NCBI RefSeq assembly: GCF_018143015.1
Contig: NC_054741.1
Coordinates: 66,719,754 to 66,783,753, forward strand
Source: Lytechinus variegatus
Taxonomy: Eukaryota > Echinodermata > Echinoidea > Temnopleuroida > Toxopneustidae
Reading direction: 5' to 3'
Length of the DNA: 64,000 nt
Part shown: positions 20,060-64,000 of the stretch, in pieces
Numbering within the stretch: position 1 is the first letter of the stretch
Layout: each line of letters opens with the position of its first letter
Made by a program: the position numbers and the translations under genes
The notes under the pieces: model-generated
What the model was told of the DNA's origin: nothing
What the model saw: the letters and a program-made list of their open reading frames with translations, nothing else
Database searches by the model: none

Positions 20060-20101
<42 letters not shown>

Positions 20102-26100: not shown

Positions 26101-29100
26101 TGACATAACATGATATAAAGGAACAATCGATTATTGTCATTGGTGCCGTGGCCGAGTGGTCTAAGGCGCCTGGCTATACATGGAAAGTCCGGGGTTCGAT
26201 CCTCGGCCGCGCACCTATGCCCGTGAGCAAAGCATCTAATCTACAATTCTCATTTATCCTGCTTTCAAATAAATGGAAATGCTTTATGCATTATTGGTAA
26301 CTAGGTGTGCACTTGTTTTTTTAATAATAATAATAATATTTCAAGTAACCTCATTTGAAAGTTTATGGAATCATACAATGCAGAAATGACTCATTGGCCC
26401 GTATTCTGAATTCAGATTTTATTTAACCCCTGATCTAGTGTTGTGATTAAACTATGGATAGCCAGTTGTGATAAAATTTTCTCACACTACGAAATCAATT
26501 TATCTGCTTATTTGACTTTCCAATCGTTTATAAATGTCAGGGAAAAATTACTGAATTATTTTCATATCCTTTAAAGAGTGGGGAAGTAGCAAAAATCGTA
26601 ATTTAGAAAACAATGTAAACAAACTTTTGATATTTTCTACTTCCTTTTAGAGTAAGTTTAGCACTGACCTGGACCATAGGCTAAGTTTAAACAGGCTGTG
26701 ATACAGTGGATACACTGTAATGAGGCCATGCGATAGATTTCTTCAAGGACAAAATATGTACAAAATTATTCATAGAAGTTTAAGCGAGAGAGCTAAGCGA
26801 CATGCAGACTTTGCGACTTTTATTACAAAATTGGTAAATTCAGTATAGTCATTCAATAGTTTAGTCATTGCCACCCTCTCCCCCCTCCCCCTCTCCCAAA
26901 AATGGGATATATCCCCAACCTCTAGAAAATTATCTCTAGTAATCACTTACCTTCATATCCAAGATACTTGCAGATGAACCGCGATGCATTCTTTGGCCAA
27001 TCTCGCTGATGAACGAGCATATCGGTTGATGGGTCAGCTTGAGATGTGACAACCAATCTTCCTTCTGTTTCAGTACCGCCGACAAGTCTTAAAGACTGTA
27101 AGAATGGCTCTTAAATTAATGCAAATAAATTAAAATTATATATATAATAAAATATGTGGGATGTTGCAGCGAGATCGATGTTCTTAAAGGGGAAAGATTA
27201 TATTCAAACAATTCAATAGAATTCGCCGAGTAAACGCTAAACTATTCATTGAAATCTTATAATTATAAGAAAATAATTGAATTGTGAATTTAACCATTAT
27301 TTTCATTTTGTGAACACAGTTATGAGCGTCAATATGGATATACAATAAGTGGGCTGATGATGTCATGTTCCCACATTGCCTTTTATGTTATATATTTCCA
27401 TACGTGTGATGTATCTCCTTTGTTTGAAAATGAGTTGCAGCATTGATTATCAAACACATTAAATCATGGGTCAATCCATTCTGTTTGTTCTTTGAGAAAG
27501 AGTTTGAATAAACATGCATAATTCCATATGAAATACAAAAGAATAAGTGAGGAATTGACAGCGTCAGCTCTTAATTGCAAATACACGACATGCATAGGCC
27601 TAGTCAATAATTCACCGAAAAATACAAAACATTAAAATTTCAAATGTCAAAACAGTGTAATTCTTTTTCCGATTTTGATGAAATATTCAGTGCTTTGTTT
27701 GTCTGAATTACTTTAATTTCTTCAAATAATATTGTTTTCAGTATGAAGTACCCCTTTTTGGATACATTATGTTCATGGATAGGGATTTCAATACAAGATC
27801 AAATTGATAGTTCAAATTGACACAGGTCATTTTTCTCGCAATACCATACCGTACCTTGGCAGTCTTGAAATCACATTACAACAAATATTGATAGTTTGTC
27901 CCGGTGACACAACATTTTCTCCTGCGACATTTGTTCCGGTCTTATCATGCTTATATTCTTCGAGGGAACCGGGTTAGAATTAGGATTGTAATATAGTTTT
28001 TAGTTCAGAATAATGTAAAGATAAAGACTATGGTTTGGAAGTTTGGAGGCGTGCAGATTTTCCATAGGAGCAGTCTGTCCCGCACGATTCACCAAGGGTA
28101 TATTAGAAATTATTAATTTTGTCACGTTCTTACCTACACAGAAGAGTCTTTTTGATATAGGAGGTGAAACATTTAACCAACTTGGTATGGCTGAGGTGTT
28201 GAATTCTACTAGTTCTAATTGTACAACGTCTCCACTTTCCAACATCTTTGATGGACACTGAATGAATCCGGGGCAGTTTTGATCAGCAGCAAGAGCTGTA
28301 ATGGGGTTAAAGTGGTTAATAAAAAAGTTTGCTGTTTGAACACCCGGGTTTGAACGTTCAGAACTACAGGAATGCGTTGTGTTCGCATTTACTACTGGGG
28401 AAACTCTCTACAACGCATCGTTTCCTATGAAAATACAATTAAAATCACAATGGAGAGCTGAGAGGCTTTTGTCGAAAGCGATGTACTGGGACTAGACAGC
28501 AGATCATCCCGAAGATTTACACCGTACGAACTATTGCAAATAATGTAGTTGTCCAAAGTCAGGAGATTCCGATGCTGTCCCGGTCCATCGACTTTCGACA
28601 AAAGCCTCTCAGCTCTCCATTGTGATTTCGCTTGCATTTGCACAGAGTTGTTGCGTAGTAGAGAGTTTTCCCGGAGTAAATGCGGAAAGCCTGAAACGAC
28701 GTCAGTCAGGGGCCGGGAAATTATGATGGTCGAAAGAATTCTAAAATAATTGTACTTAGTGGAAGCGTTATGATGTAGCGGTTCTGATTCTATATAGCCT
28801 TGGAATCAGTGAGTCGCGTTTCCGAATCCTACCGTCCATCTACACTTTCCTACTTTCCACCAAGGTGTTAAATGATGGGGACCCGGTATATGTCAAAGCC
28901 TATGTAGTATGCCTATAGCTGATTCTTGGAAATCTTGCTGGAAAGCTCCCCAGGGAGTGGAGAAATTACAAACATTATGTGTGGGCATGTCAGGATTCAA
29001 TGACCGGGTAATGATATTTGCAATTTAAAACGCATAGAAAAATAATGTATTAAGTGCTGTATAAACATTATAAACATTACTATATATTTTTTTACTTTTT

Positions 29101-31122
29101 ATTTTTTGTTCATTATTATGATCATCATCATCATTATATTTCGCCGATATAACTCCCCTGCTAGCGCGAAGCGCGAGCTGATTTTTTTTTCTTAAAAAGT
29201 TGGACATTTTAAGCACTTTTAGTAATCATAAACAAGATTGGTTTCTTACTATGAACTTGAAATTTTTTTATATTTCGTCCCAAAATTTGTGATTCTAAGC
29301 ACTTTTTGTGACCCTGAACAGTTAGGATGGTTATCTATCTAAGCAGTTCATGCAAGCTTGAGCTGAAAAGCTTTAATATCATGACCTTGGACATTCTAAG
29401 CACTTTGGGTAATCTTTTTTTTTTTGCTGTAATTCATGAAGAGAATACGTATCTTTTATGTTCAGTAATTTTTGGAAGAACAGAATACAATGAAAACTCG
29501 ATTTGGCAACAAAATTATTTGTGCATATTGACTTTAAAATGGTATATTCAAAACTCCATGTTATCCCCGTGAGCAGATTATATTCTTGCACAGGGAATAC
29601 GAGGGCGGAGCGCGAACAATTTTTTTTTTTATGGACCCGATTTTTTTATTTCCTTTTATTCCAATCCCCTTTTTTCAATTTTTTTCTCTTTTTTATCTTG
29701 CTCTCATATCCCTCTTCTTTTTTCCATTTTTATTCTTCGCGTTTTGTTAGATCTATCCTTTCTTTTCATGTATTTTTCTATATTCTGTGAAATCTGTATG
29801 CAATAAACCGAATTGAATTTGAATGTGGGAAATGGGGGGTTGTATTAAGGAAAAGTGAAGAAATGCGAGCCTAGCCTAGCGCAGAGAGTGAGCTTGGAAA
29901 GTTGCGCACATTTTCAGGTGGAAGTCTATTTCTTTCAATATTTTTGTGTTTCCAGTCTTTTCACTATTATTCCTTGTATTTCTTATAACATCGCATTATG
30001 AAGGGTAATTAACAAATTCATGAATTATATAATGGAGGGATTTGATCTAAACCTCCTTCATTTTGGTGCGAAATTTTTGTTTGCTTTTCGATTTTTTTGC
30101 TAAACAAAATCGTATAAGAAGCGAGTTTAAACTTTGTACTATTTTGCATAGTAAAAATTGCAATATTTCGTTATTCTATATTATTTTGGTTTCGTTTTAT
30201 CTTGTTTCAGCTGTTCAGTAGGCCTACACTTGTTATCGTTAACCTTTTTCCTTTATTCTTTTTTTTCTCTCTTTCTTCTTTCTTTACACCTTTCTTTCTA
30301 GCTCCTTTATTTCTTTCTTTCTTTCTTTTTTTTCTTCCTCTCTTTCTGTTTTTAGGGGGCTGTCCACCACCTGAAATTTAGGGGGACGCGTCCCTCCCCC
30401 CCCCCTCCCGCTATCGCAGCCTATACATGCTATTGTAGAAGAGCAAAGGAAATGATAAAAGAGAATAAAAAAATCTTGATAAACCATCAACAAAATCAAC
30501 AACTACTTTGACAAGTAGTATAGTGATCTGTAAAATCACTGCTCGCTACCCAGGTTGCCCATCAGTTTCTGCTGAATGGCCAAACTCAGCATAATCTTCA
30601 GCAAACATGGCAAAAGGAATATCTTTCAACCGTGGATCTACCTCTGAAACTAACCCGATGAACACTCTACTAAGATTTTTAATTTTAAATAATTTCAGGC
30701 TTCAATCAGCAGATTTTTAAGGAACTTGGACTACCTTGACCACACGAGGATGAATTAAGACCTCTACAAAGAACTCTGAATGGAATGACTCATCCATATT
30801 TTTTAAGTGTTACGTAAATTGTTAGAATTATCATGACTGTGCAATTTGCCATTTTCAAAACTGTTTCTCGTTATGATTTTTATGCGGTAACTGAAACTAA
30901 GCCAACCAAAACTATAGTCAACCATTTCGACGGGTTGAATTTGAAACAAATTGGTCTTATGAGATGCTATCACAGGAACACGGAGCTGCATCGGTTTTAT
31001 GACATAATACCGGTCGATCAAAGGATAATGAATGAAATAAATAGTCTTGAACAATTACCTGTTTCTTGAAGTAAGACCAAGGATAACAAGAGAAGTAGCC
31101 CAAACATGATGTAATTGGTCAT
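2906..31122 (-). CDS. Gene 1: secreted SRCR-like plus double discoidin (F5/8 type C) protein, 9 coding exons
   Basis: Coding exons in transcript order: 31122-31059, 28295-28138, 27095-26951, 24089-23913, 19796-19468, 15987-15831, 13651-13428, 7413-7267, 3049-2906. They sum to 1545 bases, 514 codons plus TAG. Every intron has GT..AG ends and the phases agree. Order in the protein: signal peptide (about 1-22, hydrophobic run GLLLLLSLVLL), a 52-residue module with Cys pairs, an SRCR-like domain (about 76-181), discoidin domain 1 (about 185-340) and discoidin domain 2 (about 353-514). N-glycosylation sequons occur in exons 2-4 (NTS, NVS, NAS, NNS, NIT). Discoidin domains usually bind glycans or phospholipids at the cell surface; SRCR domains bind protein or microbial ligands. 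An extracellular recognition or adhesion role is inferred, and no ligand can be named. The least certain splice is the exon 2 donor. I know no family with exactly this architecture. Confidence 0.87.
3745..4295. repeat. Dispersed repeat shared with gene 2 intron 3
   Basis: Similar to 46295-46665: GTTCCATTCT.CGCAT, GCCAAGTACA.TGTA, TGTGCTATTCTAGTCACC and ATCTTGCTTTGAAAT occur in the same order. The sites are not equivalent in the two genes, so it is a mobile or dispersed family. Confidence 0.6.
4303..5426. mobile_element. hAT-like non-autonomous element, nested
   Basis: Ends are GTGGCGGATCCAG and CTGGATCCGCCCCTG, flanked by CATATTA on both sides (4296-4302 and 5427-5433); the eighth base differs. 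Subterminal G/C runs are typical of this MITE type. It lies inside the 3.6 kb element, so it is younger than it. Confidence 0.75.
5434..5720. repeat. Dense GTCTC/GAGAC motif field
   Basis: About eleven GTCTC or GAGAC pentamers within 290 bases, many as GTCTCTGCGACGG or TTTGAGACGG, with TTGGGACTATTTT repeated. A second patch of the same sequence lies at 6855-6925. Function unknown; it belongs to the inserted 3.6 kb block. Confidence 0.7.
5890..6310. repeat. Dispersed repeat, inverted partner at 22290-22560
   Basis: Segments such as TATGCTTTGGAGCGG, TTTCTTTGTTCTTTTTCTC and GCATTGGAACGGAAATT recur inverted at 22330-22460. Family not identified. Confidence 0.5.
7267..7413 (-). CDS. Gene 1 exon 8: discoidin domain 2, middle
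   Basis: 49 codons, phase 0 on both sides: IDVGQTSLITGIIVQGRHME, then HQWVTSLKVSYSLDDYIWTF and a Cys-containing end. This is the second and third beta-sheet segment of an F5/8C domain. I count 27 differences in 147 bases from gene 2 exon 8 (about 82% identity). Confidence 0.92.
7485..8422. mobile_element. Tc1/mariner-like non-autonomous element
   Basis: 938 bases in gene 1 intron 7, flanked by TA. Ends are CAGTGCGGATCAAAAAAAAT and, inverted, CAGTGCGTATTTACAAAAAA. No transposase frame is visible. TA flanks and the CAGTGCG end support the Tc1/mariner assignment. Confidence 0.72.
8423..10749. other. Gene 1 intron 7 sequence without recognised content
   Basis: AT-rich and absent from gene 2, so inserted or greatly diverged. 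Two loosely similar blocks (GGATCAATACAGGATCC at 9990 and GGATCAGTACAGGATCC at 10280) suggest a duplicated segment. A TGGTGCCAAGGTGGGAC at about 9660 resembles a tRNA primer site, but no terminal repeats were found. No gene supported. Confidence 0.4.
11776..12158. mobile_element. MITE nested in the fold-back element
   Basis: Ends ATACCCCTTCCATAAACC and, inverted, ATACCCCTTTCATAAACC. It contains two copies of TTATGCGG/CCGCATAA around AGCAGCAT. Confidence 0.65.
12160..12430. other. GC-rich CGG/TCGG block of unknown nature
   Basis: Sharply richer in G+C than its surroundings, with repeated CGGTC, ACCGA and CCGGCC words. No reading frame, hairpin or family recognised. Confidence 0.4.
12869..13427. 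other. Unidentified higher-GC segment upstream of gene 1 exon 7 donor
   Basis: About 550 bases with a more coding-like base mix than the intron around it. Short open stretches exist on both strands but resemble no family I know. No counterpart in gene 2. It could be a transposon or processed-transcript fragment. Confidence 0.35.
13428..13651 (-). CDS. Gene 1 exon 7: discoidin domain 2, N-terminal part
   Basis: It encodes ADMNQEESGCPHPLRGSKMG, then DGRIPDSSLTSSSYR, NGRLNGGIDSNRNACWLA and DKWVK. Phase 1 in, phase 0 out with donor GTGAGT. Its DNA is 95% identical to gene 2 exon 7 (11 differences in 224), far more than neighbouring exons. Confidence 0.92.
13748..14297. mobile_element. MITE with 22-base terminal inverted repeats
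   Basis: Both ends carry GACGAGTGGATACCATGCGC, followed by GA, in opposite orientation. Next to the left end are a C run and a long A run. I found no convincing target duplication. It lies in gene 1 intron 6. Confidence 0.75.
14317..14744. mobile_element. hAT-like MITE with perfect 8-bp target duplication
   Basis: Ends CATAGGCGGCGGAAGC and GCTTCCGCCGCCAATG, flanked by GAATCCCC on both sides (14309-14316 and 14745-14752). Internal T-rich and C-rich tracts with CTTGTCAA repeats. The 8-base duplication fits hAT. Confidence 0.85.
15036..15362. mobile_element. MITE with CTGTTACACC ends
   Basis: Ends CTGTTACACCAGATTTCCTA and, inverted, CTGTTACACCGGATTTCCTA. Inside are palindromes such as GTCTCGGGGCGCCCCGAGAC (15319-15338) and a variant near 15150. 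Confidence 0.8.
15395..15656. mobile_element. Partial MITE of the family in the gene 1 3' UTR
   Basis: TTACATCCGATTTCGATGAA, TTTTCAGTGTTATGCTTG and the end GGGTGGACTTTCC match the inverted sequence of 2683-2887. The left boundary is unclear. Confidence 0.6.
15831..15987 (-). CDS. Gene 1 exon 6: discoidin domain 1, C-terminal third
   Basis: It encodes AFPGNYDSRSHVEYSFFTPI, then VCRFFRIHPKKTL and IRLELYGYGPINELL. F.GN and R(F)FRIHP are typical of the family. The closing Cys normally found in LELYGC is Tyr here, although the opening Cys of exon 5 is present. Phase 0 in, phase 1 out. Confidence 0.9.
16000..16549. other. Gene 1 intron 5, mostly unassigned
   Basis: 16150-16300 looks like a dispersed repeat (GAGGAGCCTAGAAGTCAAGG, GTCTCAGGAGCAAGAGGC) absent from gene 2. 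From about 16420 (CACCTAGATGGACT) the intron aligns with gene 2 from about 42280. Confidence 0.4.
16550..16936. mobile_element. Fold-back MITE, about 190-base arms
   Basis: AATTCACAAAGGTGGTTT at the left recurs inverted at the right, and the two halves pair almost throughout, meeting at AGTCCACTGTTTT / AAACAGTGGACT. Gene 2 lacks it: GTAAAAACTTTGGATGCAAA is continuous there. Confidence 0.85.
17122..17261. mobile_element. 140-base MITE with TGGGCTCCGTAACAC ends
   Basis: TGGGCTCCGTAACACAAA at both ends in inverted orientation. Gene 2 has the uninterrupted site TTCATGACAACAGGTCTGAA, where gene 1 is split after AGAAC. Confidence 0.87.
17286..18036. mobile_element. MITE with GGGGYGGTATTCTGAA ends
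   Basis: Left end CCAGGGGCGGTATTCTGAAC and right end inverted CCTGGGGTGGTATTCTGAAA. Both arms carry repeated TATGACAAAA and GTCATAACTTTTGT words, giving a long imperfect hairpin. Confidence 0.7.
18030..19214. mobile_element. Compound fold-back element (nested palindromes)
   Basis: Arms 18162-18605 and 18770-19214 are inverted copies over about 440 bases with high identity. The 164-base spacer is itself an inverted copy of 18030-18155. Each arm contains a palindrome around GGAATAGTCGACTATTCC, and the spacer one around GGGGCTTCG. No coding frame. Not present in gene 2. Confidence 0.85.
19215..19467. other. Gene 1 intron 5, proximal part
   Basis: Short intron remnant that resumes similarity to gene 2 (GTTTGCATGCTCC, GAGCTTGTTTGGATCA against 42590-42650). 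Nothing else seen. Confidence 0.5.
19468..19796 (-). CDS. Gene 1 exon 5: discoidin domain 1, N-terminal two thirds
   Basis: It opens SYMCNAPRGSPLGLESGKI and runs through ARLNGQSAWRP, DADPWLQVAFD and YKLSYSMDGTSWAFY to NTDK, all hallmark F5/8 type C segments (opening Cys, G.I.D..I.AS, ARL....W.., WLQVDL, V..S.DG..W). Phase 1 in, phase 0 out. Unlike domain 2, no intron splits the PWLQ|VAFD position. Confidence 0.92.
20040..20100. repeat. (CT)n microsatellite with C-rich lead
   Basis: A run of C followed by about 17 CT units in gene 1 intron 4. Gene 2 has a much shorter CT tract at 43455. Confidence 0.9.
20280..21900. repeat. Degenerate tandem/inverted repeat block, about 165-180 base period
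   Basis: CCAAGATGGCTTCC recurs at 20636, 20811, 20992 and, changed, 21153, with AAGGGTCAA.TA..ACATTA.GAC between. After about 21400 the repeats run in the opposite sense (GGAAGCCATCTTGG at 21840). It may be one fold-back element, split by a SINE. Confidence 0.65.
21584..21764 (+). mobile_element. SINE with 7SL-like head and tRNA-type B box
   Basis: It begins GGGCGTTGTGGCGTGTGCCT then GTAATCC, close to the 5' domain of 7SL RNA. It continues with GGTTCGAGCCC, a pol III B box, then TCTTTCGGATGGTGACGTTA and a CA-rich tail. CAAACT flanks both sides. Too short and changed to be a 7SL gene. Confidence 0.68.
21963..22249. mobile_element. MITE with ACACTGTTA ends
   Basis: ACACTGTTAGAAAATT at the left and TTTTTTAACAGTGT at the right. 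Internal short inverted repeats of TTACAG/CTGTAA. Confidence 0.7.
22250..22693. other. Repeat-derived intron DNA, gene 1 intron 4
   Basis: 22290-22560 is the inverted partner of 5890-6310. The remainder is AT-rich with nothing recognised. Confidence 0.5.
22694..23353 (+). mobile_element. GTCTC-family element, copy 1
   Basis: It starts GTCTCGCCTGCATAGCAGAG and CGAGAC, passes GGCGCCGCTTTTCCGACGGC and ends GCAGACGAGAC. Internal repeats of about 150 bases carry CATGAAACTTGGACATA, TTTCAGGTCACATGAC and AAAGGTCATTT.GGGTCAA. Confidence 0.8.
23354..23912. other. Gene 1 intron 4, segment next to exon 4
   Basis: 23440-23640 contains repeated TTACGCATGA / TCATGCGTAA words in both orientations, probably a degenerate inverted-repeat element. 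From about 23650 it aligns with gene 2 from about 44620. Confidence 0.5.
23913..24089 (-). CDS. Gene 1 exon 4: second half of SRCR-like domain
   Basis: It encodes GAYATVGGDLFEIPSSPNNS, then YDAVSLRCPANMDNITRCWY and ends DKSIAIVCCT. This parallels the SRCR tail (I.L..V.C.G.E..L..C ... AGVVC). Phase 1 on both sides, so exon 4 alone is a symmetric module. Donor GTGAGT. Confidence 0.85.
24250..25050. mobile_element. 800-base MITE with internal minisatellite
   Basis: Ends CTAAAGCCCCAGTCACATAT and, inverted, CTAAAACCCCATTCACTTAT. Gene 2 has an empty site (GTAGTTCATGTTGAATTATT near 45180). Inside, 24415-24535 holds about five copies of a 24-base unit like CTACACGGATCAACACG. Confidence 0.82.
25051..26141. 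other. Gene 1 intron 3, aligned with gene 2 intron 3
   Basis: Recognisably similar to 45195-46250 (CCAACGTTCAGA, GTAGATATAGGTCCAGATTA, TGCGTTCCCTCGCATTAAAT). No gene or insertion recognised. Confidence 0.6.
26142..26338 (+). mobile_element. tRNA-like SINE in gene 1 intron 3
   Basis: 26142-26215 is tRNA-like with A box TGGCCGAGTGG and B box GGTTCGATCC, but the acceptor stem has mismatches and the anticodon region is irregular. A body (TTTCAAATAAATGGAAATGC, GGTGTGCACTTG) follows and ends in (TAA)n. Gene 2 lacks it at this site but has another copy at 49513-49671. Confidence 0.75.
26396..26700. mobile_element. GGCCCGTATTCTGA-family MITE, gene 1 intron 3
   Basis: Left end GGCCCGTATTCTGAATTCAG. 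The body aligns with 46969-47247 in gene 2 (CTATGGATAGCCAGTTGTGA), so the insertion predates the gene 1/gene 2 split. The right end is worn. Confidence 0.68.
26951..27095 (-). CDS. Gene 1 exon 3: first half of SRCR-like domain
   Basis: It encodes SLRLVGGTETEGRLVVTSQA, a linker, then RDWPKNASRFICKYLGYE. The LRLVGG..EGR start and the W..A..ICKYLGY end match the SRCR consensus (VRLVGG..EGRVEV, ANVVCRQLGY). The usual Cys of the VCDDGW segment is absent (MLVHQRDW). Donor GTAAGT, phase 1 out. Confidence 0.85.
28138..28295 (-). CDS. Gene 1 exon 2: N-terminal Cys-containing module
   Basis: The acceptor CATTACAG is followed by LAADQNCPGF and ends in KRLFC. It contains NTS and NVS sequons and three Cys. 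Phase 1 in, phase 0 out: the frame of exon 3 requires the donor GTAGGT at 28137. The stronger-looking GTAAGA four bases downstream would leave phase 1 and break the frame, unless an exon has been missed. No domain family recognised. Confidence 0.78.
28385..28683. mobile_element. Fold-back MITE in gene 1 intron 1
   Basis: GCATTTACTACTGGGGAAAC recurs inverted at 28664-28683 (GTTTTCCCGGAGTAAATGC), and AATGGAGAGCTGAGAGGCTT is inverted at 28600. Arms about 105 bases. Duplicate at 50912-51209. Confidence 0.8.
28759..29030 (+). mobile_element. tRNA-derived SINE, second family
   Basis: tRNA-like head (GATGTAGCGGTTCTGATTC, then GAGTCGCGTTTCCGAATCC as B box) followed by AAAGCCTATGTAGTATGCCT and CTTGCTGGAAAGCTCCCCAG, a body I associate with common echinoderm SINEs. 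The 3' end is uncertain. Duplicate at about 51286-51555. Confidence 0.7.
29130..30430. other. Gene 1 intron 1 repeat-rich block
   Basis: Contains GCGCGAAGCGCGAGC, long pyrimidine tracts (30240-30350), a LINE-like tail GCAATAAACCGAATTGAATT near 29802, and a G/C-run end (GGGGGACGCGTCCC at 30380) that looks like a MITE terminus. I could not pair its ends. The same block is at 52610-53935. Confidence 0.5.
31059..31122 (-). CDS. Gene 1 exon 1: signal peptide
   Basis: The ATG at 31122-31120 opens MTNYIMFGLLLLLSLVLLQE, followed by T and a phase-1 GTAATT donor. A strong hydrophobic core and the ALAA at the exon 1/2 join fit a cleaved signal peptide. The second Met (codon 6) is an alternative start. 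A TATA box lies 117 bases upstream. Confidence 0.85.
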
Positions 31123-31238
31123 CACACGACGCTGCAGATATCATCAGCAACAAGAAATTACTGGGTGCCTGTAATAGTGTCAGTAGTGACAAGAGTATTC
31201 TCAAACTTAAGAACTAATAATCTTCAAAAGAGTTGTAC

Positions 31239-31246
31239 TATTTATA
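31239..31246 (-). promoter_or_regulatory. TATA box of gene 1
   Basis: TATAAATA on the minus strand, 117 bases upstream of the ATG. This predicts a start site about 30 bases downstream and a 5' UTR of roughly 90 bases, assuming no upstream non-coding exon. The same box at the same distance serves gene 2. Confidence 0.6.
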
Positions 31247-33611
31247 AAGCTATAAGAAAAATGACAAAAATTTAACAAAAAATCATCCTCTCTGGAGAAA
31301 ACTGGAAAGGAATCAGCAAACTTGATGAAAATAAGATCCGAGGATGATATTTCTCAACGAGATGACGATATACTTTGTCGTTATTCTAATCAACGCCTTG
31401 ATATCTAATTAAACAGTGCGATTATTTGTCATATTAAGCCGATGTCATGAAGGGGATCTGACAAGACAAACGAAACCAATTCCAAAGCAAACCGATATAT
31501 ATCTCTCAATGGCAATGAAGTAATAGTTTTTTGTTGAACTGAGACGGTTTCGATGGACAGCCAAAAGAATAGGATAACAAGACCCAGAGAAACAATTCGA
31601 TTATTAAGTGCAGAAATGTCAGGTCGTCAGTAGATTCCGTTCAATTACTCTCCACACCTTGACATGGGAGAACACACTCATTTTGTCTTATCAAGCTACG
31701 TGCGTGAAGCAATGATTATGATAGGACAGATCGATCGATACATCACCCTACGAGGACAAAATACTTTTATCAATATGATACAATGATGATGTATAGGAAT
31801 AAACTTTCTCATTACTGCAGAGCAACTCTGAGTTTCAAGGAAAGTGCAAATTGAAATTTGTTCAGCTTGATTGCACAAAATAGCAACCACTGGTGCAAGG
31901 AGAGTGTTAACAATATGCGTTAATTAATATGATTGCATTTTTTTCACTTCACTATTACGCTTCATTGCTGATTACATCACATACTCAAAATCAAACAATG
32001 CACGCAGTTTTGCTTCTGCACTTTTAATTTGTTTTACTTGTCTTTATGTATAATTAATTTCATGAACGGGTCAATGAAATTCGAAGCTTCGAAGGTTTCG
32101 GGACAAGCTCAGTTCATCACACTTTACACTATGTTATCCCTATACTGTGTCTGTGCAAATCAAGAACAAGCCTTCCTGGTTGGATTTGTAACAACTTGTC
32201 ATAAATTAGAAATATCTAAGGTTCATGATGGTAATGAAATAATCAAGTTTGCATTATTTAACAACAGTAGAAGCAAAATAATTCATGTTACATTGGAAAC
32301 ACATTTAAAGATAACCATGATAACGATGATAAAAATGACTATATTAGGAATAAAGAAACAAGCATCATGTTGATAACAATAATGATAGTAATGATAATGA
32401 TTTGAAATAATGATGATGGGATTAATAATAATTATGATATTGATGTTAACAATAGTTGTGACAATGATGATGATAATAATAAAATAATCAGTTTGGCGCA
32501 TAATGATAATGATAATAATGATGATATTAATAATATGATTTGGAAGAAGAGGAAGAAGAAGAAAGGGTGAAAGAAGGGTAGCTGCCATGGACCAAGCATT
32601 AGTAGTGATTACTCCCATCCAATATTTCGTTGTGTCACCCTTCTACATTTGAATTGTACAAATGAATCTAAATTTAGATTTCCATATTTGACATGTTTTA
32701 TTTCTTCATTTATTTATTCATTCATTTTATTCAATTATTTATTTATTTATTTATTGGTTTTCTTTATTGCATACTGCAGGGTAGGCTGCAAAACTGCTTT
32801 CCTAAGGCGCCCTGCAGTTTAACAAATAACTCAACATCATAGCAATTATTATGTTTGTAACAATATAGTATTAAACATAATAAATTATATACATATAGAG
32901 TGAATCAGCAATTATCATGGAATCATTACATCTACATCAATTTTGTCTAATTTGATCTACACCTTGATCATCCTTTTCCATTGATTTCTCATTTCCAAAC
33001 GATTTAAATAAATTTTTGAAATGTCAAATATAGATTAGATCTTCCCATCTTTTCTTAGTTTCTTTTTTTAGTTCTGACAAAAAACATTTGAATAAACCTA
33101 ATTTCATATTATAAAATACAAAAGAACAAGTGGGGATAAGACATCTTCAGCCCACCTAATGAATATTCATAAAGACATGCCTAGAACTTTTCATCAGAAT
33201 AACGCAAATATTTAAAATTCAATAACTTTGTTACTTGTTATCCGATTTTGATCAACTTTTCAGTATTTTGCTTTGTGAATTTTACTCTATTTATTGAGAT
33301 ATAAATATTTCCAGCCCGGAGCATCCCTTTAAGACCTGTCACATTAAATGCCTTTGTTACACCAAATAAAGCGAAATAAACTCACAAAGGTACGTGCAAA
33401 AAAGAGAACATAATCAAATGAAATCACCAATCAATTTTTTTTTTATTCAGGAAAAGTGCTAACCGCTTAAATCTATAATCGTTATTTATCACATTCAATT
33501 CAATAATTTATTTCAATATGAAAGCTCACTGCATATTGGAGCCTTGCGGCTGAATTATGATTGATACAATAGGACGAAACGACATGCAATAATACTTAGG
33601 GTCATCGAAAT
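31247..33611. other. Intergenic DNA upstream of gene 1
   Basis: AT-rich. Holds a (GATAAT)-rich simple repeat at 32355-32560, a (TTTA)n tract at 32700-32755 next to GCAGGGTAGGCTGC and GGCGCCCTGCAG (possible LINE or SINE 3' end on the minus strand), and a worn MITE at 33110-33335 ending CAGCCCGGAGCATCCCTTTA. No gene supported. Duplicate at 54749-57099. Confidence 0.55.
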
Positions 33612-35222: not shown

Positions 35223-35348
35223 ATTGAAATAGTACATAGATTTAATAAATATTGTTAATAGAAAAAAAAATGAAAATCAAAATTGTATGATATAATTTAA
35301 TCAGATTGTCTTTGATGTATATCTTAAACAAGTGGAATGCCTCTGGCC

Positions 35349-36073
35349 GTCTCACCTGCATCACGCGATTCAACATAGCAGCAGTGCTGACTTTGAAAAC
35401 TACTATAACTCGCACAAGATGTTCAGTGATACTTGGTTACTCTTATTTCCACGTTTTATGAACTAGACCAATACACTTTAAAGAGATAGGATGGTAATTC
35501 AACAAATACCCCCAATGTGGCCAAAGTTCATTGACCTCACATGACCTTTGACCTTGATCACGTGACCTGAAACTTGCACAGGATATTCTGTGATACTTGA
35601 TTAATCTTATGAACTAGACCAACATACTTTTAAAGTTATGATGGTAATTCAACAAATACCCCAAATTCGGCCAAAGTTCATTGACCCTAAATGACCTTTG
35701 ACCTTGATCATATGACTTGAAACTTGCACAGGATGTTCAGTGATACTTGATTACTATCATGTCTAAGTTTCATGAATCAGATCCAAAAACTTTTAAAGTT
35801 TTTGTAATTCAACAGATACCCCCAAATCGGCCAAAGTTCATTGACCCTAAATGACCTTTGACCTTGGTCATGTGACATGAAACTCTAATAGGATGTTCAG
35901 TAATACTTGAATAACCTTATGGCCAAGTTTCATGAACTAGGTCCATATACTTTCTAAGTTATGATGTCATTTCAAAAACTTAACCTTAGGTTAAGATTTG
36001 ATGTTGACGCCGCCGCCGCCGTCGCCGTCGGAAAAGCGGCGCCTATAGTCTCACTCTGCTATGCAGGTGAGAC
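35349..36073 (-). mobile_element. GTCTC-family element, copy 2 (duplication copy A)
   Basis: Minus orientation: the hairpin head GTCTCACCTGCATAGCAGAG with GTGAGAC is at 36073, and the tail GATGCAGGTGAGAC is at 35349. Four internal repeats centred on GACCTTTGACCTTG (plus strand). Confidence 0.85.
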
Positions 36074-36705: not shown

Positions 36706-36899
36706 ACACTCTTAAAATGATGTAAAATATACTGACCACGCAACACTTGGTTAAAAAATTATCTAACTCTGGGTAGTTTTCAACCAGTTCTGTGTAGTTT
36801 TCACCCAAAGCACACATTATTGGTTTAAAACTAGCCAGAATTAGATAAAGTTTTAGCCAATTGTGTGGACAGTATGTTACCCAACATTTTTAAGAGTGT
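36706..36899. mobile_element. MITE with ACACTCTTAAAA ends
   Basis: ACACTCTTAAAATG at the left and CATTTTTAAGAGTGT at the right. GGTAGTTTTCAACCAG is repeated internally. 194 bases, intergenic. Confidence 0.78.
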
Positions 36900-54624: not shown

Positions 54625-54740
54625 CACACGACGCTGCAGATATCATCAGCAACAAGAAATTACTGGGTGCCTGTAATAGTGTCAGTAGTGACAAGAGTAT
54701 TCTCAAACTTAAGAACTAATAATCTTCAAAAGAGTTGTAC

Positions 54741-54748
54741 TATTTATA
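54741..54748 (-). promoter_or_regulatory. TATA box of gene 2
   Basis: TATAAATA on the minus strand, again 117 bases upstream of the ATG. It lies in promoter sequence duplicated almost without change from gene 1. Confidence 0.6.
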
Positions 54749-57099
54749 AAGCTATAAGAAAAATGACAAAAATTTAACAAAAAATCATCCTCTCTGGAGA
54801 AAACTGGAAAGGAATCAGCAAACTTGATGAAAATAAGATCCGAGGATGATATTTCTCAACGAGATGACGATATACTTTGTCGTTATTCTAATCAACGCCT
54901 TGATATCTAATAATATTAAACAGTGCGATTATTTGTCATATTAAGCCGATGTCATGAAGGGGATCTGACAAGACAAACGAAACCAATTCCAAAGCAAACC
55001 GATATATATCTCTCAATGGCAATGAAGTAATAGTTTTTTGTTGAACTGAGACGGTTTCGATGGACAGCCAAAAGAATAGGATAACAAGACCCAGAGAAAC
55101 AATTCGATTATTAAGTGCAGAAATGTCAGGTCGTCAGTAGATTCCGTTCAATTACTCTCCACACCTTGACATGGGAGAACACACTCATTTTGTCTTATCA
55201 AGCTACGTGCGTGAAGCAATGATTATGATAGGACAGATCGATCGATACATCACCCTACGAGGACAAAATACTTTTATCAATATGATACAATGATGATGTA
55301 TAGGAATAAACTTTCTCATTACTGCAGAGCAACTCTGAGTTTCAAGGAAAGTGCAAATTGAAATTTGTTCAGCTTGATTGCACAAAATAGCAACCACTGG
55401 TGCAAGGAGAGTGTTAACAATATGCGTTAATTAATATGATTGCATTTTTTTCACTTCACTATTACGCTTCATTGCTGATTACATCACATACTCAAAATCA
55501 AACAATGCACGCAGTTTTGCTTCTGCACTTTTAATTTGTTTTACTTGTCTTTATGTATAATTAATTTCATGAACGGGTCAATGAAATTCGAAGCTTCGAA
55601 GGTTTCGGGACAAGCTCAGTTCATCACACTTTACACTATGTTATCCCTATACTGTGTCTGTGCAAATCAAGAACAAGCCTTCCTGGTTGGATTTGTAACA
55701 ACTTGTCATAAATTAGAAATATCTAAGGTTCATGATGGTAATGAAATAATCAAGTTTGCATTATTTAACAACAGTAGAAGCAAAATAATTCATGTTACAT
55801 TGGAAACACATTTAAAGATAACCATGATAACGATGATAAAAATGACTATATTAGGAATAAAGAAACAAGCATCATGTTGATAACAATAATGATAGTAATG
55901 ATAATGATTTGAAATAATGATGATGGGATTAATAATAATTATGATATTGATGTTAACAATAGTTGTGACAATGATGATGATAATAATAAAACTATAATGA
56001 TAATGATAATAATGATGATATTAATAATATGATTAAGAAGAAGAGGAAGAAGAAGATAAACGTGAAAGAAGGGTAGCTGCCATGGACCAAGCATTAGTAG
56101 TGATTACTCCCATCCAATATTTCGTTGTGTCACCCTTCTACATTTGAATTGAAATCTAAATTTAGATTTCCATCTTTGACATCTTTTATTTATTCATTTA
56201 TTTATTCATTCATTTTATTCAATTATTTATTTATTTATTTATTGGTTTTCTTTATTGCATACTGCAGGGTAGGCTGCAAAACTGCTTTCCTAAGGCGCCC
56301 TGCAGTTTAACAAATAACTCAACATCATAGCAATTATTATGTTTGTAACAATATAGTATTAAACATAATAAATTATATACATATAGAGTGAATCAGCAAT
56401 TATCATGGAATCATTACATCTACATCAATTTTGTCTAATTTGATCTACACCTTGATCATCCTTTTCCATTGATTTCTCATTTCCAAACGATTTAAATAAA
56501 TTTTTGAAATGTCAAATATAGATTAGATCTTCCCATCTTTTCTTAGTTTCTTTTTTTAGTTCTGACAAAAAACATTTGAATAAACCTAATTTCATATTAT
56601 AAAATACAAAAGAACAAGTGGGGATAAGACATCTTCAGCCCACCTAATGAATATTCATAAAGACATGCCTAGAACTTTTCATCAGAATAACGCAAATATT
56701 TAAAATTCAATAACTTTGTTACTTGTTATCCGATTTTGATCAACTTTTCAGTATTTTGCTTTGTGAATTTTACTCTATTTATTGAGATATAAATATTTCC
56801 AGCCCGGAGCATCCCTTTAAGACCTGTCACATTAAATGCCTTTGTTACACCAAATAAAGCGAAATAAACTCACAAAGGTACGTGCAAAAAAGAGAACATA
56901 ATCAAATGAAATCACCAATCAATTTTTTTTTTATTCAGGAAAAGTGCTAACCGCTTAAATCTATAATCGTTATTTATCACATTCAATTCAATAATTTATT
57001 TCAATATGAAAGCTCACTGCATATTGGAGCCTTGCGGCTGAATTATGATTGATACAATAGGACGAAACGACATGCAATAATACTTAGGGTCATCGAAAT
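54749..57099. other. Intergenic DNA upstream of gene 2, copy B of 31247-33611
   Basis: Almost identical to copy A; the GAT/AAT simple repeat (55870-56035) and the (TTTA)n tract (56185-56242) differ in length. Confidence 0.6.
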
Positions 57100-58708
57100 C
57101 AGTGGCGGCACAAGAATTTTTTTTAACTAGGGTGGCAATAGGTTGATAGGGGGCCAAACGAAAGTTTTTTTGGGGGGTTGGGAGCAAAGGCAGACACAAT
57201 TTTTTTACCAATTCGAGCGTGAAGTGGGAGCTATTTTTTTTAAATAAGCTATATATAGCGACTTGAAAAGGGACCTGTTAAGGACTTTTGCAGTGACTCG
57301 TAAAGACGATATCTCACCAAATGAATATCGCGAGCGCGAAGCGCAAGCGGAAAATTTTCAACATCCTGATATCTGGACGTTACAAGCCCTGTCTGTAACC
57401 ATGAACAGGATGGTTGCCTAGCTAAAAAAAAAAAAGAGCGCGTAGCGTGAAATGAAAAGTTGTGATATTCAGCATTTTTTGTAAATTGTAAACATGCAGG
57501 ATGCCTATTTCGCTAAAACGAATAATAAAAACTTGGATAAAATTAAGAATTAGTTTTGAATATTGATTTGAACACTTTTTTGCTCCATATTATCCTATTA
57601 TACAGATCATTTATTTCATTTATCTATAAAAAAAAAGTAGCCACTGCGAGTGCGAAACACGAGGGAAATTATGAATTTTATATAATGAATGACCTAACAG
57701 ATTTATGCCAGTGAATAACAGTTAATATTGCTGGACGCCAACAGTGACTGTGTGGAACATTTTCAAAATCTGAAGTGACAAATGCTGTTTTGGAACACTT
57801 TACAGCTTGGGTAGGACCCCCCCCCCCCCCCATTATGAAAAATACGAGACATTTGGCTTCCTCCTGCTCGTACGCACGGGCGTCCGTCGATATAACACAT
57901 GATATTTTTATGAAAATATGCACCCTTTTTCTTAAAAGTTGATGGAGAGGGGGGAAAATTAATCGTATCAAGTCGGGGTATTCAGTAATGAGTACAGGAG
58001 AAACTATATTTCACTGATTTTCATGATTCATTCCATTTGATTAACTCATCTATTCGTGTTTTGGGGCTAATCTTTCCCTTACGCATTGCTTTTTGGCAGA
58101 AGTTCTATGGAAAATGCACCTTTTTTCACACAAACTTTGAGACACTCTGTATTCATTCCCCCATTGCTCGAGAATGAATGGGCAGTTAACGACGGGGTTA
58201 AAGATTTATTGAGGAACGGAATGTATATTTCATGAAAATGCCATTTCCCCATTGGATGTTATCTTCAATACGTGTTTTTTAGATGAAGTTAGTTGTCGAA
58301 TAGGCTCTCCTGGCATTTGAGGTCTCTATCGGTGACGTCACTCAGGATCGTCATGCCTGAACCATCGGCCGGGCAGGGGTCGCAATGGTAGTATGATTTA
58401 TGCATAATGCACTCGATATATACAATAATCTTGTCCTCCCGTTCAAATGAATGTGAAACTCATATAATTTTCATCAGAGCATTCAACAGGAGTACTGTAG
58501 TACACATTTCTTTGTTATAAGTGAATTAAATTCCCTCCAGTGAGTTTGATCACCCCTATTGTGAAAATGTATCACCCCTACGTTGTAACACAGTCAGCTG
58601 TTTGCACTCAGGGTCACTCCGTGACCTGTGTGTGCGTTCAAGAGTTGTACACGATTTTCTGTCTCATTTAGGCAGAAATCTTTCATAATGCCCCCTTGGC
58701 TGCCACTG
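57100..58708. mobile_element. 1.6 kb hAT-like element, copy B
   Basis: Counterpart of 33612-35222, two bases shorter through homopolymer changes. Confidence 0.8.
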
Positions 58709-58834
58709 ATTGAAATAGTACATAGATTTAATAAATATTGTTAATAGAAAAAAAAATGAAAATCAAAATTGTATGATATAATTTAATCAGATTGTCTTTG
58801 ATGTATATCTTAAACAAGTGGAATGCCTCTGGCC

Positions 58835-59559
58835 GTCTCACCTGCATCACGCGATTCAACATAGCAGCAGTGCTGACTTTGAAAACTACTATAACTCGCA
58901 CAAGATGTTCAGTGATACTTGGTTACTCTTATTTCCACGTTTTATGAACTAGACCAATACACTTTAAAGAGATAGGATGGTAATTCAACAAATACCCCCA
59001 ATGTGGCCAAAGTTCATTGACCTCACATGACCTTTGACCTTGATCACGTGACCTGAAACTTGCACAGGATATTCAGTGATACTTGATTAATCTTATGAAC
59101 TAGACCAACATACTTTTAAAGTTATGATGGTAATTCAACAAATACCCCAAATTCGGCCAAAGTTCATTGACCCTAAATGACCTTTGACCTTGATCATATG
59201 ACTTGAAACTTGCACAGGATGTTCAGTGATACTTGATTACTATCATGTCCAAGTTTCATGAATCAGATCCAAAAACTTTTAAAGTTTTTGTAATTCAACA
59301 GATACCCCCAAATCGGCCAAAGTTCATTGACCCTAAATGACCTTTGACCTTGGTCATGTGACATGAAACTCTAATAGGATGTTCAGTAATACTTGAATAA
59401 CCTTATGGCCAAGTTTCATGAACTAGGTCCATATACTTTCTAAGTTATGATGTCATTTCAAAAACTTAACCTTAGGTTAAGATTTGATGTTGACGCCGCC
59501 GCCGCCGTCGCCGTCGGAAAAGCGGCGCCTATAGTCTCACTCTGCTATGCAGGTGAGAC
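58835..59559 (-). mobile_element. GTCTC-family element, duplication copy B counterpart
   Basis: Nearly identical to 35349-36073, carried by the segmental duplication. Confidence 0.85.
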
Positions 59560-60189
59560 AAAAATGGTGGCATATACTTCATTCAAACCAATTGATCACC
59601 TCTGCTGCAATATCATATAGGCCTACTATTCACAGCCGAGGCGACTATCTGGCCTGCATGAATCATGTGGAATTAACATGATTAAGCAATTGTTCGGTGT
59701 AGGTATATGAAGGAAACATTAATTTGTGACATAGAATTCGTGCAATATGAGTGAAAAACAAAATAAAGGTGTTATGCTTTCTAGTATTGACAAAACATGA
59801 TAAATTGCACTGACAAGCAAAATGTAATAAGTTCTTAATTGTTTTCCACATTCGTACATAAAAGATGTCCAAGACATCGCTACAGAAGAAAATCACAAAA
59901 CATCAAAATACAAAGCATAGTACAAAATATACAAAAATACAATACAGAAAAAAATAATATATCTAGAATGTGGGGGAGCGAGCAACAAAGGTCAAAGACC
60001 TATCGAGGTTCCTCCCAGAGCCATATGGTAAAAAAAGGATAGATAAAAAAAAACACCAAAACTATAGAAATATGTACATTTTCCTAAAAGAAAAGAAAAT
60101 GATTAACGGAATATCCAACTTAAAAAAAGGATATTAGTGTAACAGAACGTGTTCATGTTTGTGCCAAAGTACAATTATATTTTTTGCCT

Positions 60190-60383
60190 ACACTCTTAAA
60201 ATGATGTAAAATATACTGACCACGCAACACTTGGTTAAAAAATTATCTAACTCTGGGTAGTTTTCAACCAGTTCTGTGTAGTTTTCACCCAAAGCACACA
60301 TTATTGGTTTAAAACTAGCCAGAATTAGATAAAGTTTTGGACAATTGTGTGGACAGTATGTTACCCAACATTTTTAAGAGTGT
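60190..60383. mobile_element. MITE with ACACTCTTAAAA ends, copy B
   Basis: Counterpart of 36706-36899. Confidence 0.78.
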
Positions 60384-61940
60384 TATAGAGAGGCTTGGCA
60401 GGCTCTCCCCCCCCCCATGTTTTTCACGACCAAGTAAAAAAGAGAAAAAAGAAAGGGAGAATGGTGAAATATGGCATTTTCTGAATATTACATCAAAAGC
60501 TATCACAAAATTGGATTTCCGTTTATGTTTTTTTTTGAAGATGATTTTGCTTGCTTCGCTCGCAAATTCTCATAAATTTTACGTGGTACACTATATCTAG
60601 CCCCCTCAATTATTTTTGACCCATTACGCCATTTTTTTTAAAGAAAAGCCCTTTTCGAAAGAAAAGGCGCCCTTTTTCCCTGTCCTCCCCCCCCCCCCGA
60701 CTTTCAACTTCGTTCGCCGCCCCTCGATACAAGTTTTTATCAGAGTAATCAAAATATATTAAAATTAATGTCCGACTTGGTTGACATAACGAATGGTATC
60801 CCACTGATCATTACCTCATTAAATGAACATTGCATTTTCGAACAATTACACATTCTTCCGATAACCTGTATACTAAATAAACCCTTCTAAACCATTAGTT
60901 TACTCAAATCATTGTTTACGTCCTAGTTTATTCAAACCAAACTAATTACAGCGTTCGCAATAACTAAACCCCTCAAAATAATGTGAAAATCTGTGTTTGG
61001 CTTTTCTCCGAACTCCTAATTTTACACAATGCATATTTTACATCATTTAAAAGATCATTTAATTATCTTTAAGATGATACCATGCTTGTATATGATCATG
61101 CCATCACGAAAAGAGAAGGATTCAAAAGTGTTGGATGAGGTCTGAATTGAAAAGCTGCAAAACGAGCAGAAAACTAGTCATAGTCATAGTCACACAGAAC
61201 ATGATTCCTTTGTCTGTGTCAATGGAGATGAAAATCCATTTAAAGCAAGCCCCTGCTTCTGTAGTGATGGGTCTGTGAGATAACATGGTTTGAGTCGTGG
61301 TTTGAAATACCCATGCATGTTTGTTTGTTATGTGTTTGCACGTGCCGAGGTGTGTTTGACTCCATTTTAATGTTGATGTTAAGGTGCATGAAAATAATTA
61401 AAAGAAACCGCTGAGAAACCCACTCATCACCACTAAAAAAAGATCAGTGACTTTCAATATTGTGTCATTTTGCAACTTTTGAATTTTGACCTTGCCCCAC
61501 ATTTCAAGGCACTGCACCTCCATGTAAACGATAATCACATCATGTAGGGTATCATTTAAAAAAAATAATAAATGATCTATTCATTGGTAAATTACACATT
61601 GATATTCACTAAAAACCGATGAGGAATTATCGATCAAAGTCAAAAGAAACCGCTGAGAAACTTACTCATCACCACGGAAAAAGAACAGTGACTTTCAATA
61701 TTGTGTCATTTTGCAAATTTTGAATTTTGACCTTGCCCCACATTTCGAATTGAGAAGTTTATTTATTATTTGTTTATTTATTTATTCATTTATTTATAGT
61801 TCAAAATGTTAACATTATATTACAAAACATACTCAAATACTACTGGAAAAGTGAATGTAAAATAATGGTTTTGCAGTAATATAAGACTTGAATTTTAAAA
61901 GAGTGACCCTTAAAGCGTTTCAGCTATCAACTTAATTCTT

Positions 61941-62093
61941 CTAATCTAGTATACCAAGGACTTCATATCTCAAGCCGCAGTCTCCATTCCATCTATGCCA
62001 TGAGAGTGGGTGAATTCTGACATAGCGAGCAGTGAGTGGCTGGTTGAACACAATAGTCACAGGAGTGTCATAATCGTAGTTTGCAGGAAAGAC
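61941..62093 (-). CDS. Gene 3 exon 9 with stop
   Basis: Same 50 codons and TAG as gene 2 exon 9. The 3' flank also lacks the MITE found behind gene 1. Confidence 0.88.
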   Translation of the reverse strand, partial: VFPANYDYDTPVTIVFNQPLTARYVRIHPLSWHRWNGDCGLRYEVLGILD

Positions 62094-64000
62094 CTGGTAA
62101 TAAAGAGCAATAAATTAAGATTTTCATGTGATGATAGGCAAAAGTGGATCCAGGGGCTGTAGCCACCACCCCATCCCCCAACCCCACTATTACGGCAAAC
62201 GTAAAAAGGACAGGATTTATCCCCAAAATTAAATAAAATAAAGATAAGAATAGTAAGAAAAATGAAGATACATAAAAAAAAATTGTATTGGAAAATTGAA
62301 AAATTTTCGGGTCATTTTACACTAATTCCTCTGGCGCTTATTAAAGAGAACTTGCGCTTAAAATGTCCGATTTGAAGCCAATATTCAAAAAGATATTTCT
62401 GGTCACGCTTCGAACTTTCATCATTTTGTATACTGATAAACCATATACATGATATATGAAAATAAAAATTATGTAATAAATTGTGATCTCACGTAATATC
62501 ATCTGACAAAGGAAAGTAGGGCATGACGATGTGCATAACTATTTTCAGAGCATATTGCTAAAGTTTAAAATCCAATAATTTTGTTTTTTGTCAGCAGATT
62601 TCGATGAAATTTTGAATTTCATTCCCTTCATGTAGAAGTAATTATTTTCAGCCCGGAATACACCCTTTAATACGTATTATTTCTACGTCCAATTAACTCA
62701 CTTTTTGTTCGCATTGTGGTTCCAAAGCAAAAGTCCACGTATTATTATCCAATGAATGGGACACCTTCAGAGATGTCACCCAACGATGCATCATATATCG
62801 CCCTTGTACAATGATACCGGTGATGAGAGAGGTTTTTCCAACATCTATCTGATCAGTCCAAATATTCATAGAAAAAAATAAAAAGTTTGATAAACACATT
62901 GGCCCGTATTCTGATAACAGGTTTAACTTAAACTCAGGTTTAAAGTTGTGGTTTAAGTATGGGAAGCCAAAAGTATCAATTTTTCATTAAGTTGTGTGTT
63001 TCTTATGTTTACTTCGCTCTTTCCTGATTCATCGATGGTGAAGACATTCATCTATTTATACTTCCTAGACAATTATGAATGATTTGAGAGCCAAATGAGC
63101 TGAAGTATGATATCTCTACTGTTAGTGATTTATGTAACAATTGGCTGTCCATACTTGAACCACGACTTTAAACCTGGGTTAAGTTGTTCATTTCTGTTTT
63201 AATGTGTACAATCGCCACTATCTTAACATTTTGCCAAGAAAAAAAAGAACGCTCCCATATTTCAAATATAAAAAAAAACACATTGGCTGGCATTGTACAT
63301 CCGTAACGTAATATGTTACGGATGTACGCACGCACCACGAACCGTCCTCTCTGCGCACTTCGATGCGAAAGTTAGTTTGGCAGAAAACGCTTTAGAGAAA
63401 GGCTTTTCTAAAACCAGCAACAAGTGCACCTACAAGGAGAGCAAATTATTTACCGGCGTCTTCGTTCGATAGTTCAGGTTCCAAAGAATCATCCCGTATC
63501 TTATTTTCTTGAAGTGAATTATTTACGCTACAGTGGACGCGGACGCGGGTTCTGTCGCGAGGCGCGATAGCGCACTGTATCTATTCCACGAACCGTCCTC
63601 TCTGTTACGATGTCCACTGTGGCGTAAATAATTAACTTCAAGAAAATATAAAGATACGGGATGAAACTTTGGAACCAGAACTTTTGAACGAAAACACGGG
63701 TAAATAATTTGCTCTCCTTGTAGGTGCACTTATTGCTGGTTTAAAAAAAACTTTTCTTTAAATGCGTTTTCTGCCAATCTAACTTTCGCATCGAAGTGCG
63801 CAGAGAGGACGGTTCGTGGTACGTGCGACGGTATAATCAAACAAATTACAACCTACTTTTATCAGCCGATTCCAAATTTGCAGTAAAATGCGTAGATACA
63901 TAAATCTTTTCGTTCATGAAGCACAGACTTTTCTGTGTGTAGACAAATGCAAATATAACGAACTCACTTTCACCCATTTGTCTGGGTCGTCCACAACGGC
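61941..64000 (-). CDS. Gene 3 (partial): last three exons of a third paralogue
   Basis: Exons visible: 64000-63968 (3' 33 bases of exon 7), 62848-62702 (exon 8) and 62093-61941 (exon 9, ending TAG). The coding parts match gene 2 exons 7-9 at every base I compared. The gene continues past the right edge of the window. Under the crossing-over model its exons 3-6 should resemble gene 2, and its exons 1-2 should be the original, diverged ones. Confidence 0.85.
62702..62848 (-). CDS. Gene 3 exon 8
   Basis: Encodes the same 49 residues as gene 2 exon 8, with the same splice sites. It is the copy B counterpart, offset 23481 bases. Confidence 0.88.
63336..63818. mobile_element. Fold-back MITE with CACGAACCGTCC ends, copy B
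   Basis: Counterpart of 39851-40331 in gene 3 intron 7; its right end keeps the full TTCGTG. Confidence 0.85.
63968..64000 (-). CDS. Gene 3 exon 7 (cut by the window edge)
   Basis: Only the 3' 33 bases are present, encoding the end of the exon (..DDPDKWVK) before a GTGAGT donor, as in gene 2. Confidence 0.8.

What the first reader, a model, noticed from the sequence alone, without database searches (positions are those of the whole stretch)
27311..64000. Recent 22.5-kb tandem duplication with its breakpoint inside intron 2 of the gene family
27311-49833 and 49834 onward match nearly base for base. To the left of the breakpoint the two introns are still homologous (GAATTCGCCGAGTAAACGCT is in both) but only about 80% alike. 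A duplication whose two edges fall at equivalent points of two paralogous introns is the expected product of unequal crossing-over, and it keeps every gene whole.
Basis: seen in the sequence. Interest (0 to 1): 0.82.

Follow-up and report, generated by a model that had tools for sequence, protein, structure and literature searches.

The report
Tandem duplication creating a chimeric gene
In what looks like a sea urchin genome, two neighbouring copies of a gene family mispaired and exchanged DNA inside an intron, which duplicated about 22.5 kb and made one new gene with the front end of one parent and the body of the other; it is a clear example of a well-known way in which gene families grow.

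Summary
A 22.5-kb unit (about 27343-49865) is repeated in tandem from 49866 and runs past the window to about 73.1 kb. The copies differ at 236 of 22,123 aligned bases. The junction intron is a hybrid. Left of the switch it matches the intron at 73 kb (0 of 95 differences, against 20 of 97 with the intron at 27 kb). Right of it, it matches the intron at 27 kb (18 of 875, against 124 of 861). The switch lies in 90-144 bases of near-identity inside a dispersed repeat. Unequal crossing-over between paralogous introns explains this well. I modelled the gene: ten exons, 541 aa, signal peptide, SRCR-like domain, two F5/8 type C domains, one of seven places in a cluster. "Keeps every gene whole" needs changing: the middle gene is a chimera, with the left neighbour's front end and the right neighbour's type of body, and the right neighbour is broken by separate lesions. 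By my count the exchange is in intron 3. A 13.9-kb core is about five times less diverged than the flanks, so later exchange probably followed. No reads were available; an assembly artefact is unlikely but not excluded. Ordinary mechanism, clean example.

The parts
27343..49865 (.). Copy 1 of the tandem duplication
   Evidence: Self-BLAST and alignment; edges from diagnostic sites
49866..64000 (.). Copy 2 of the tandem duplication, cut by the window end; continues to about 73092
49866..50009 (.). Exchange interval. Its first 90 bases (49866-49955) show no base difference in any of the ten pairs of the five introns (the inverted copy has an 11-base insertion there); inside a dispersed repeat
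   Evidence: Diagnostic sites; pair counts; dispersed copies genome-wide
27343..27486 (.). Corresponding interval in the parental 27-kb intron
2906..31107 (-). Gene g0 (left parent), exons 31107-31059, 28295-28134, 27957-27855, 27087-26951, 24089-23913, 19796-19468, 15987-15831, 13651-13428, 7413-7267, 3049-2906; open frame of 542 aa
   Evidence: Exon mapping with splice sites and phase; model only
38462..54609 (-). Gene g1 (chimera), exons 54609-54561, 50820-50659, 50474-50381 (g0-type), 48734-48598, 45020-44844, 43239-42914, 41829-41673, 40705-40482, 39367-39221, 38614-38462 (g2/g5-type); open frame of 541 aa
   Evidence: Pfam domains; model only
61941..64000 (-). 3' exons of gene g2 (62093-61941, 62848-62702, and one cut by the window end at 64000); the gene continues to 85.8 kb and is broken upstream
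51572..52541 (.). Probable solo LTR, in copy 2 and not in copy 1; the genome-wide matches include seven pairs 5.9-6.2 kb apart
30748..44680 (.). Low-divergence core of copy 1 (0.40% substitutions to copy 2, against 2.27% and 2.16% in the flanks)

Best explanation
A non-allelic (unequal) crossover took place between intron 3 of gene g0 (at 27.3 kb) and intron 3 of the next gene in the same orientation (the intron now at 73.1 kb, or a near sister of it). The exchange fell in 90-144 bases where the introns are nearly identical. It added one 22.5-kb unit and a new middle gene, g1, which takes its upstream region, signal-peptide exon and two N-terminal exons from g0 and its SRCR-like and two F5/8 type C exons from the neighbour. 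Shown: the tandem repeat in this assembly, the hybrid intron, the chimeric make-up of the modelled exons, the open reading frame. Inferred: that meiotic unequal exchange (rather than replication-based repair using the same homology) did it; that the 13.9-kb core was later homogenised by a second exchange or long conversion; that the protein is a secreted recognition molecule.
For: Junction intron i50 against i72: 0 of 95 differences left of the switch, 124 of 861 right of it. Against i27: 20 of 97 left, 18 of 875 right (profile; site list). Trees: the right-hand intron block groups i27 with i50 (support 100/100), exons 2+3 group g0 with g1 (100/100), while exons 5-10 group g1 with g2 and g5 (96/97) and put g0 at the far end. 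Protein: in the N-terminal part all 101 compared residues of g0 and g1 are identical (g0 has three extra residues, not compared), in the rest 357 of 437. Splice sites and phases of all ten modelled exons fit in g0, g1 and g4. Homology runs through the junction position in three other copies, as expected if the junction is an ordinary intron position.
Against: Copy divergence is not uniform: two change points at 30747 and 44681, gain in log-likelihood 73.9 against a maximum of 10.7 in 200 uniform placements (the null was scanned on a grid twice as coarse), so one simple event does not explain everything. In the 1-kb bins starting at 46 and 49 kb copy 2 is closer to the distant copy g5 than to copy 1, so the right flank has been exchanged since, or the true donor was a sister of the present 73-kb intron. 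The stretch of identity is short (90-144 bases), and the homology around it is only about 79% over 1.5 kb (27199-28657 with 72951-74452). The reciprocal deletion product cannot be seen in one genome.
Confidence: 0.82

Rival explanations
1. Assembly artefact: the two haplotypes of a heterozygous animal were laid end to end, or contigs were joined at the shared intron repeat.
For: The 0.4%/2.2% mosaic would also suit two alleles. The same assembly holds two bindin loci on C13, 6.3 Mb apart, 97.99% identical over 3.3 kb, and one of two 1-kb probes about 20 kb away has a 99% partner in the same arrangement, which may be a false duplication. The other probe, on the other side, found no partner near the second bindin locus among 35 listed matches, and is itself a dispersed repeat.
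Against: No N in 260 kb. The join falls at the same point of two paralogous introns, with a clean switch of type; an arbitrary contig join would hardly do so. The core is only 0.40% diverged, and copy 2 alone of the pair carries the inserted LTR.
Confidence: 0.1
2. Replication-based template switching (such as break-induced replication) rather than meiotic crossover joined the two introns. This overlaps with the best explanation: same parents, same product, other machinery.
For: The identity at the joint is short (90-144 bases), and such repair gives the same junction.
Against: No inserted bases and no further rearrangement at the joint; the joint is in register within longer homology, as homologous exchange predicts.
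Confidence: 0.15
3. An older tandem duplication made the two copies, and the hybrid intron arose later by gene conversion of the 5' part of g1 from g0.
For: Later exchange in the array is likely.
Against: The g0-like tract runs from 50.0 kb through the whole upstream part and on into the repeated unit, so the simple duplication with its edge at the intron needs fewer events.
Confidence: 0.1

Closest known systems
Stickleback spiggin tandem array with chimeric spiggin genes (PMC4989455, passages seen)
   Different: Other gene family and animal; there chimeric transcripts and partial genomic clones, here one junction with parental introns on both sides
Sea urchin SRCR superfamily in tandem clusters (PMC10855680, passages seen)
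   Same: Sea urchin SRCR-domain genes, 70.47% reported in tandem arrays, F5/8 type C among the partner domains listed
   Different: A survey of numbers and architectures; the passages seen describe no junction of a single event. The SRCR domain here is below Pfam's cut-off
SpTransformer (185/333) clusters of Strongylocentrotus purpuratus (PMC8634487, passages seen)
   Same: Echinoid immune gene cluster with tandem segmental duplications and members in opposite orientations; unequal crossing-over and conversion listed among the processes
   Different: Unrelated genes; segmental duplications of 2.7-2.8 kb in the passages seen, with edges placed at GA repeats, not inside an intron

Membership tests
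Tandem duplication by unequal crossing-over (NAHR) | Direct repeat with hybrid junction between two homologous parental sites | tested here: met
Tandem duplication by unequal crossing-over (NAHR) | Parental sites present on both outer sides of the pair | tested here: met
   i27 at 27.3 kb and i72 at 73.1 kb
Tandem duplication by unequal crossing-over (NAHR) | Reciprocal deletion allele in the population | not testable with these tools
   One genome held
Assembly (haplotig) duplication | No single molecule carries both copies; half read depth per copy | not testable with these tools
   No reads
F5/8 type C domain proteins | PF00754 above its cut-off | tested here: met
   158.4 bits in g1, cut-off 28.2, two stretches
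SRCR superfamily | PF00530 above its cut-off | tested here: not met
   19.8 bits in g1 and 23.2 in g0, cut-off 26.1; positions 3-99 of 100 covered, so SRCR-like only

The most novel reading that the evidence does not exclude
Intron 3 of this family carries a 180-base block (90 of its bases without a base difference among five copies) that serves as a repeated exchange point, so that the cluster swaps its front ends (upstream region, signal peptide, N-terminal exons) between bodies. Here the swap gave a body whose two closest relatives have damaged front ends (g2, g5) an intact one from g0.
Probability: 0.22. Interest if true: 0.5.

Novelty: new member of a known kind. Interest (0 to 1): 0.32.

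Why it matters
It shows, to within about 100 bases, how a probable recognition-type gene family gains a chimeric member: the upstream region and N-terminus of one gene are put on the domains of another in one step. It also warns that paralogue trees of such clusters must be made exon block by exon block.

Tried and rejected
Haplotype artefact: considered throughout; kept as a rival at 0.1. Species: Bindin (PF02084) matches at 4e-66, with no match in 14 control genomes; that bindin marks sea urchins and their kin is recalled, not from a call. The size of 869.6 Mb alone does not name a species (passages of one paper give 870 Mb for a Mespilia globulus individual), so none is claimed. Conserved block as an exon: rejected; stops in the minus-strand frames and dispersed copies genome-wide. 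ORFs at 28000-28805 as a gene of their own: rejected; 28295-28134, inside one of them, and 27957-27855 behave as exons. "The crossover rescued a broken gene": not shown, because the exon 3 acceptor loss shared by g2 and g5 may be later than the duplication. Rfam on the window: 0 matches at gathering score. Papers on this SRCR-plus-F5/8 cluster: searches (5 papers listed; 10 listed) gave no title on it; of those I read passages of three. Searches (species and mechanism; bindin copies; 8 of 165 listed) added only PMC4989455.

Full report
Where it is. The window is C2:66719754-66783753 of an 869.6-Mb genome in 33 contigs. Bindin (PF02084) matches at 4e-66, which points to a sea urchin (that bindin marks this group is recalled); the species was not established. 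I read 260 kb around the window, which hold no N. Coordinates above 64000 are in window numbering beyond its end.

The observation. Self-comparison confirms a direct repeat: 27199-29048 with 49722-51571, 29069-45680 with 52556-69148, and 45674-48627 with 69182-72121. Aligning 27343-49865 with 49866-73092 gives 236 substitutions in 22,123 aligned bases and 70 indel events. Copy 2, not copy 1, has an extra piece of about 970 bases (about 51572-52541). It matches many places genome-wide (40 scored of 1594 candidates), among them seven pairs 5.9-6.2 kb apart, as the LTRs of a retrotransposon would, so it is a solo LTR by inference.

The junction. Homologous introns exist at about 27.3, 49.9, 73.1, 116.8 (inverted) and 199.0 kb. 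In a five-way alignment the junction intron (i50) switches type. Left of the switch (49733-49829) it differs from the 73-kb intron at 0 of 95 sites and from the 27-kb intron at 20 of 97. Right of it (50010-50900) the counts are 124 of 861 and 18 of 875. The last site of the 73-kb type in the run is 49865. The first of the 27-kb type is 49956, a weak site because the inverted copy shares the base, and then 50010. A few later sites (50077, 50078, 50110-50112) side with the 73-kb type again, as private changes of i27 would. So the exchange lies in 90 to 144 bases.

The block at the switch. Across 49830-50009 the 27- and 73-kb introns differ at 2 of 180 sites, against 19 of 95 to the left and 117 of 848 to the right; at the right-hand rate this has probability 1.1e-9. 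All ten pairs of the five introns differ at 1 to 4 of 180 sites, and at 0 of 90 in 49866-49955; indels are not in these counts, and the inverted copy has an 11-base insertion at 49914 and the 199-kb copy one extra base. The block belongs to a dispersed repeat: of 40 places scored (173 candidates), 5 are the cluster's own at 94-100%, the other 35 are 68-88% alike. Whether it is so alike because it is constrained or because it is an exchange hot spot is open.

The gene. Conserved segments, splice sites and phases give ten exons on the minus strand: a signal-peptide exon, two N-terminal exons without a Pfam match, two exons of an SRCR-like domain and five exons of two F5/8 type C domains, then a stop. 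The spliced g1 model has 541 aa. PF00754 scores 158.4 bits (cut-off 28.2); PF00530 (SRCR) only 19.8 (cut-off 26.1). The best solved chains by sequence are a factor-V-like subunit of a snake venom prothrombin activator (4bxs, 3.5e-34), then coagulation factors VIII and V and the neuropilins, over the two F5/8 domains or one of them (66 sequences matched, 60 shown). A protein search of the genome with one F5/8 exon lists 38 matches, 7 of them in C2:66.64-66.92 Mb; five of these seven were modelled as full genes. Cautions: no transcript supports these exons, and the acceptors of exons 3 and 4 were chosen to keep the phase.

The chimera. In g0 and g1 the 101 compared residues of the N-terminal part are all identical (three extra residues in g0 are not counted), but only 357 of 437 further on. 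Against g4, g1 shares 85 of 101 and 407 of 440. Exon DNA says the same: exons 2+3, g0 to g1 1 of 256 differ, g1 to g2 18 of 254; exons 5-10, g0 to g1 152 of 1175, g1 to g2 12 of 1184 (exon 4 left out because it is partly deleted in g2). Trees agree: right-hand intron block (i27, i50) 100/100, exons 2+3 (g0, g1) 100/100, exons 5-10 (g1, g2, g5) 96/97, with g1, g2 and g5 unresolved among themselves. So g1 carries the front of g0 and the body of the g2/g5 type. dN/dS over the intact pairs is 0.50 (g0-g1), 0.56 (g0-g4) and 0.73 (g1-g4), which suggests weak constraint at most.

Not every gene is whole. g0, g1 and g4 have open frames with all modelled splice sites. g2 has lost the exon 1 donor, carries CG instead of AG before exon 3, and lacks most of its first SRCR exon through a deletion of about 257 bases ending at a CT repeat. 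g5 shares the exon 3 change and has a stop in that exon. I see no sign that the exchange made these lesions: they lie in g2 and g5, not at the junction. In g1, exon 7 has a local change of reading frame that restores itself within about 20 bases and is not seen in the other four genes.

History. Copy 1 and copy 2 differ by 2.27% in 27343-30750, 0.40% in 30751-44750 and 2.16% in 44751-49865. Two change points (30747, 44681) gain 73.9 log-likelihood units; 200 uniform placements, scanned on a grid twice as coarse, gave at most 10.7. The flanks probably date the duplication, or reflect two different parental haplotypes, and the core was homogenised later. In two of the five 1-kb bins from 45 to 49 kb (46 and 49 kb) sites where copy 2 equals g5 but not copy 1 (14 and 13) far exceed those where the two copies agree against g5 (3 and 4); in the other three (45, 47, 48 kb) they do not (11 against 68, 11 against 10, 11 against 19). 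So some exchange with a more distant member seems to have gone on too.

Artefact. The strongest reason for caution is elsewhere in this assembly: two bindin loci on C13, 97.99% identical over 3.3 kb. Of two 1-kb probes about 20 kb to either side, one has a 99% partner at the matching side of the second locus; the other is a dispersed repeat with 35 listed matches, none near the second locus. So this duplicate is longer than the gene on one side and has not been shown to go on at the other. Against an artefact in the window stand the gap-free sequence, the in-register hybrid intron and the low divergence of the core. Reads would decide.

Known or new. Unequal crossing-over between paralogues giving a chimeric gene is a known process; chimeric spiggin genes (PMC4989455, passages) and sea urchin immune clusters (PMC8634487 and PMC10855680, passages) are the nearest cases that I read of. 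This is a new, unusually clear member of a known kind.

Noticed in passing
G000:C13:24947663 and C13:18601949 (L029, L030): Two bindin loci 6.3 Mb apart, 97.99% identical over 3.3 kb; one of two flanking probes about 20 kb away is duplicated too. A real bindin duplication or a false one in the assembly.
   Followed up: partly
41673-41829 (exon 7 of g1): Small indels within about 20 bases shift and restore the frame, changing a stretch of the first F5/8 domain; the other four modelled genes keep the usual form.
   Followed up: partly
1-432, array reaching to about -3417 left of the window: Minisatellite of a 67-base unit, about 3.9 kb long, copies about 98% alike.
   Followed up: no
149149-151681 (window numbering, outside the window): Minisatellite of a roughly 56-base unit filling most of the last intron of g4.
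   Followed up: no
35407-36079, 47546-48404, 58893-59565, 22688-23355: Tandem repeats of a roughly 160-base unit in several introns and intergenic stretches, in both orientations.
   Followed up: no
18162-18615 with 18760-19214; 39842-40341; 63327-63827; 28384-28684: Inverted repeats and self-complementary stretches of 300-500 bases, possibly foldback or mobile elements.
   Followed up: no
159247-165877 (window numbering, outside the window): Tandem array with a unit of about 1.77 kb, some copies 99% and others 93% alike, within the gene cluster.
   Followed up: no
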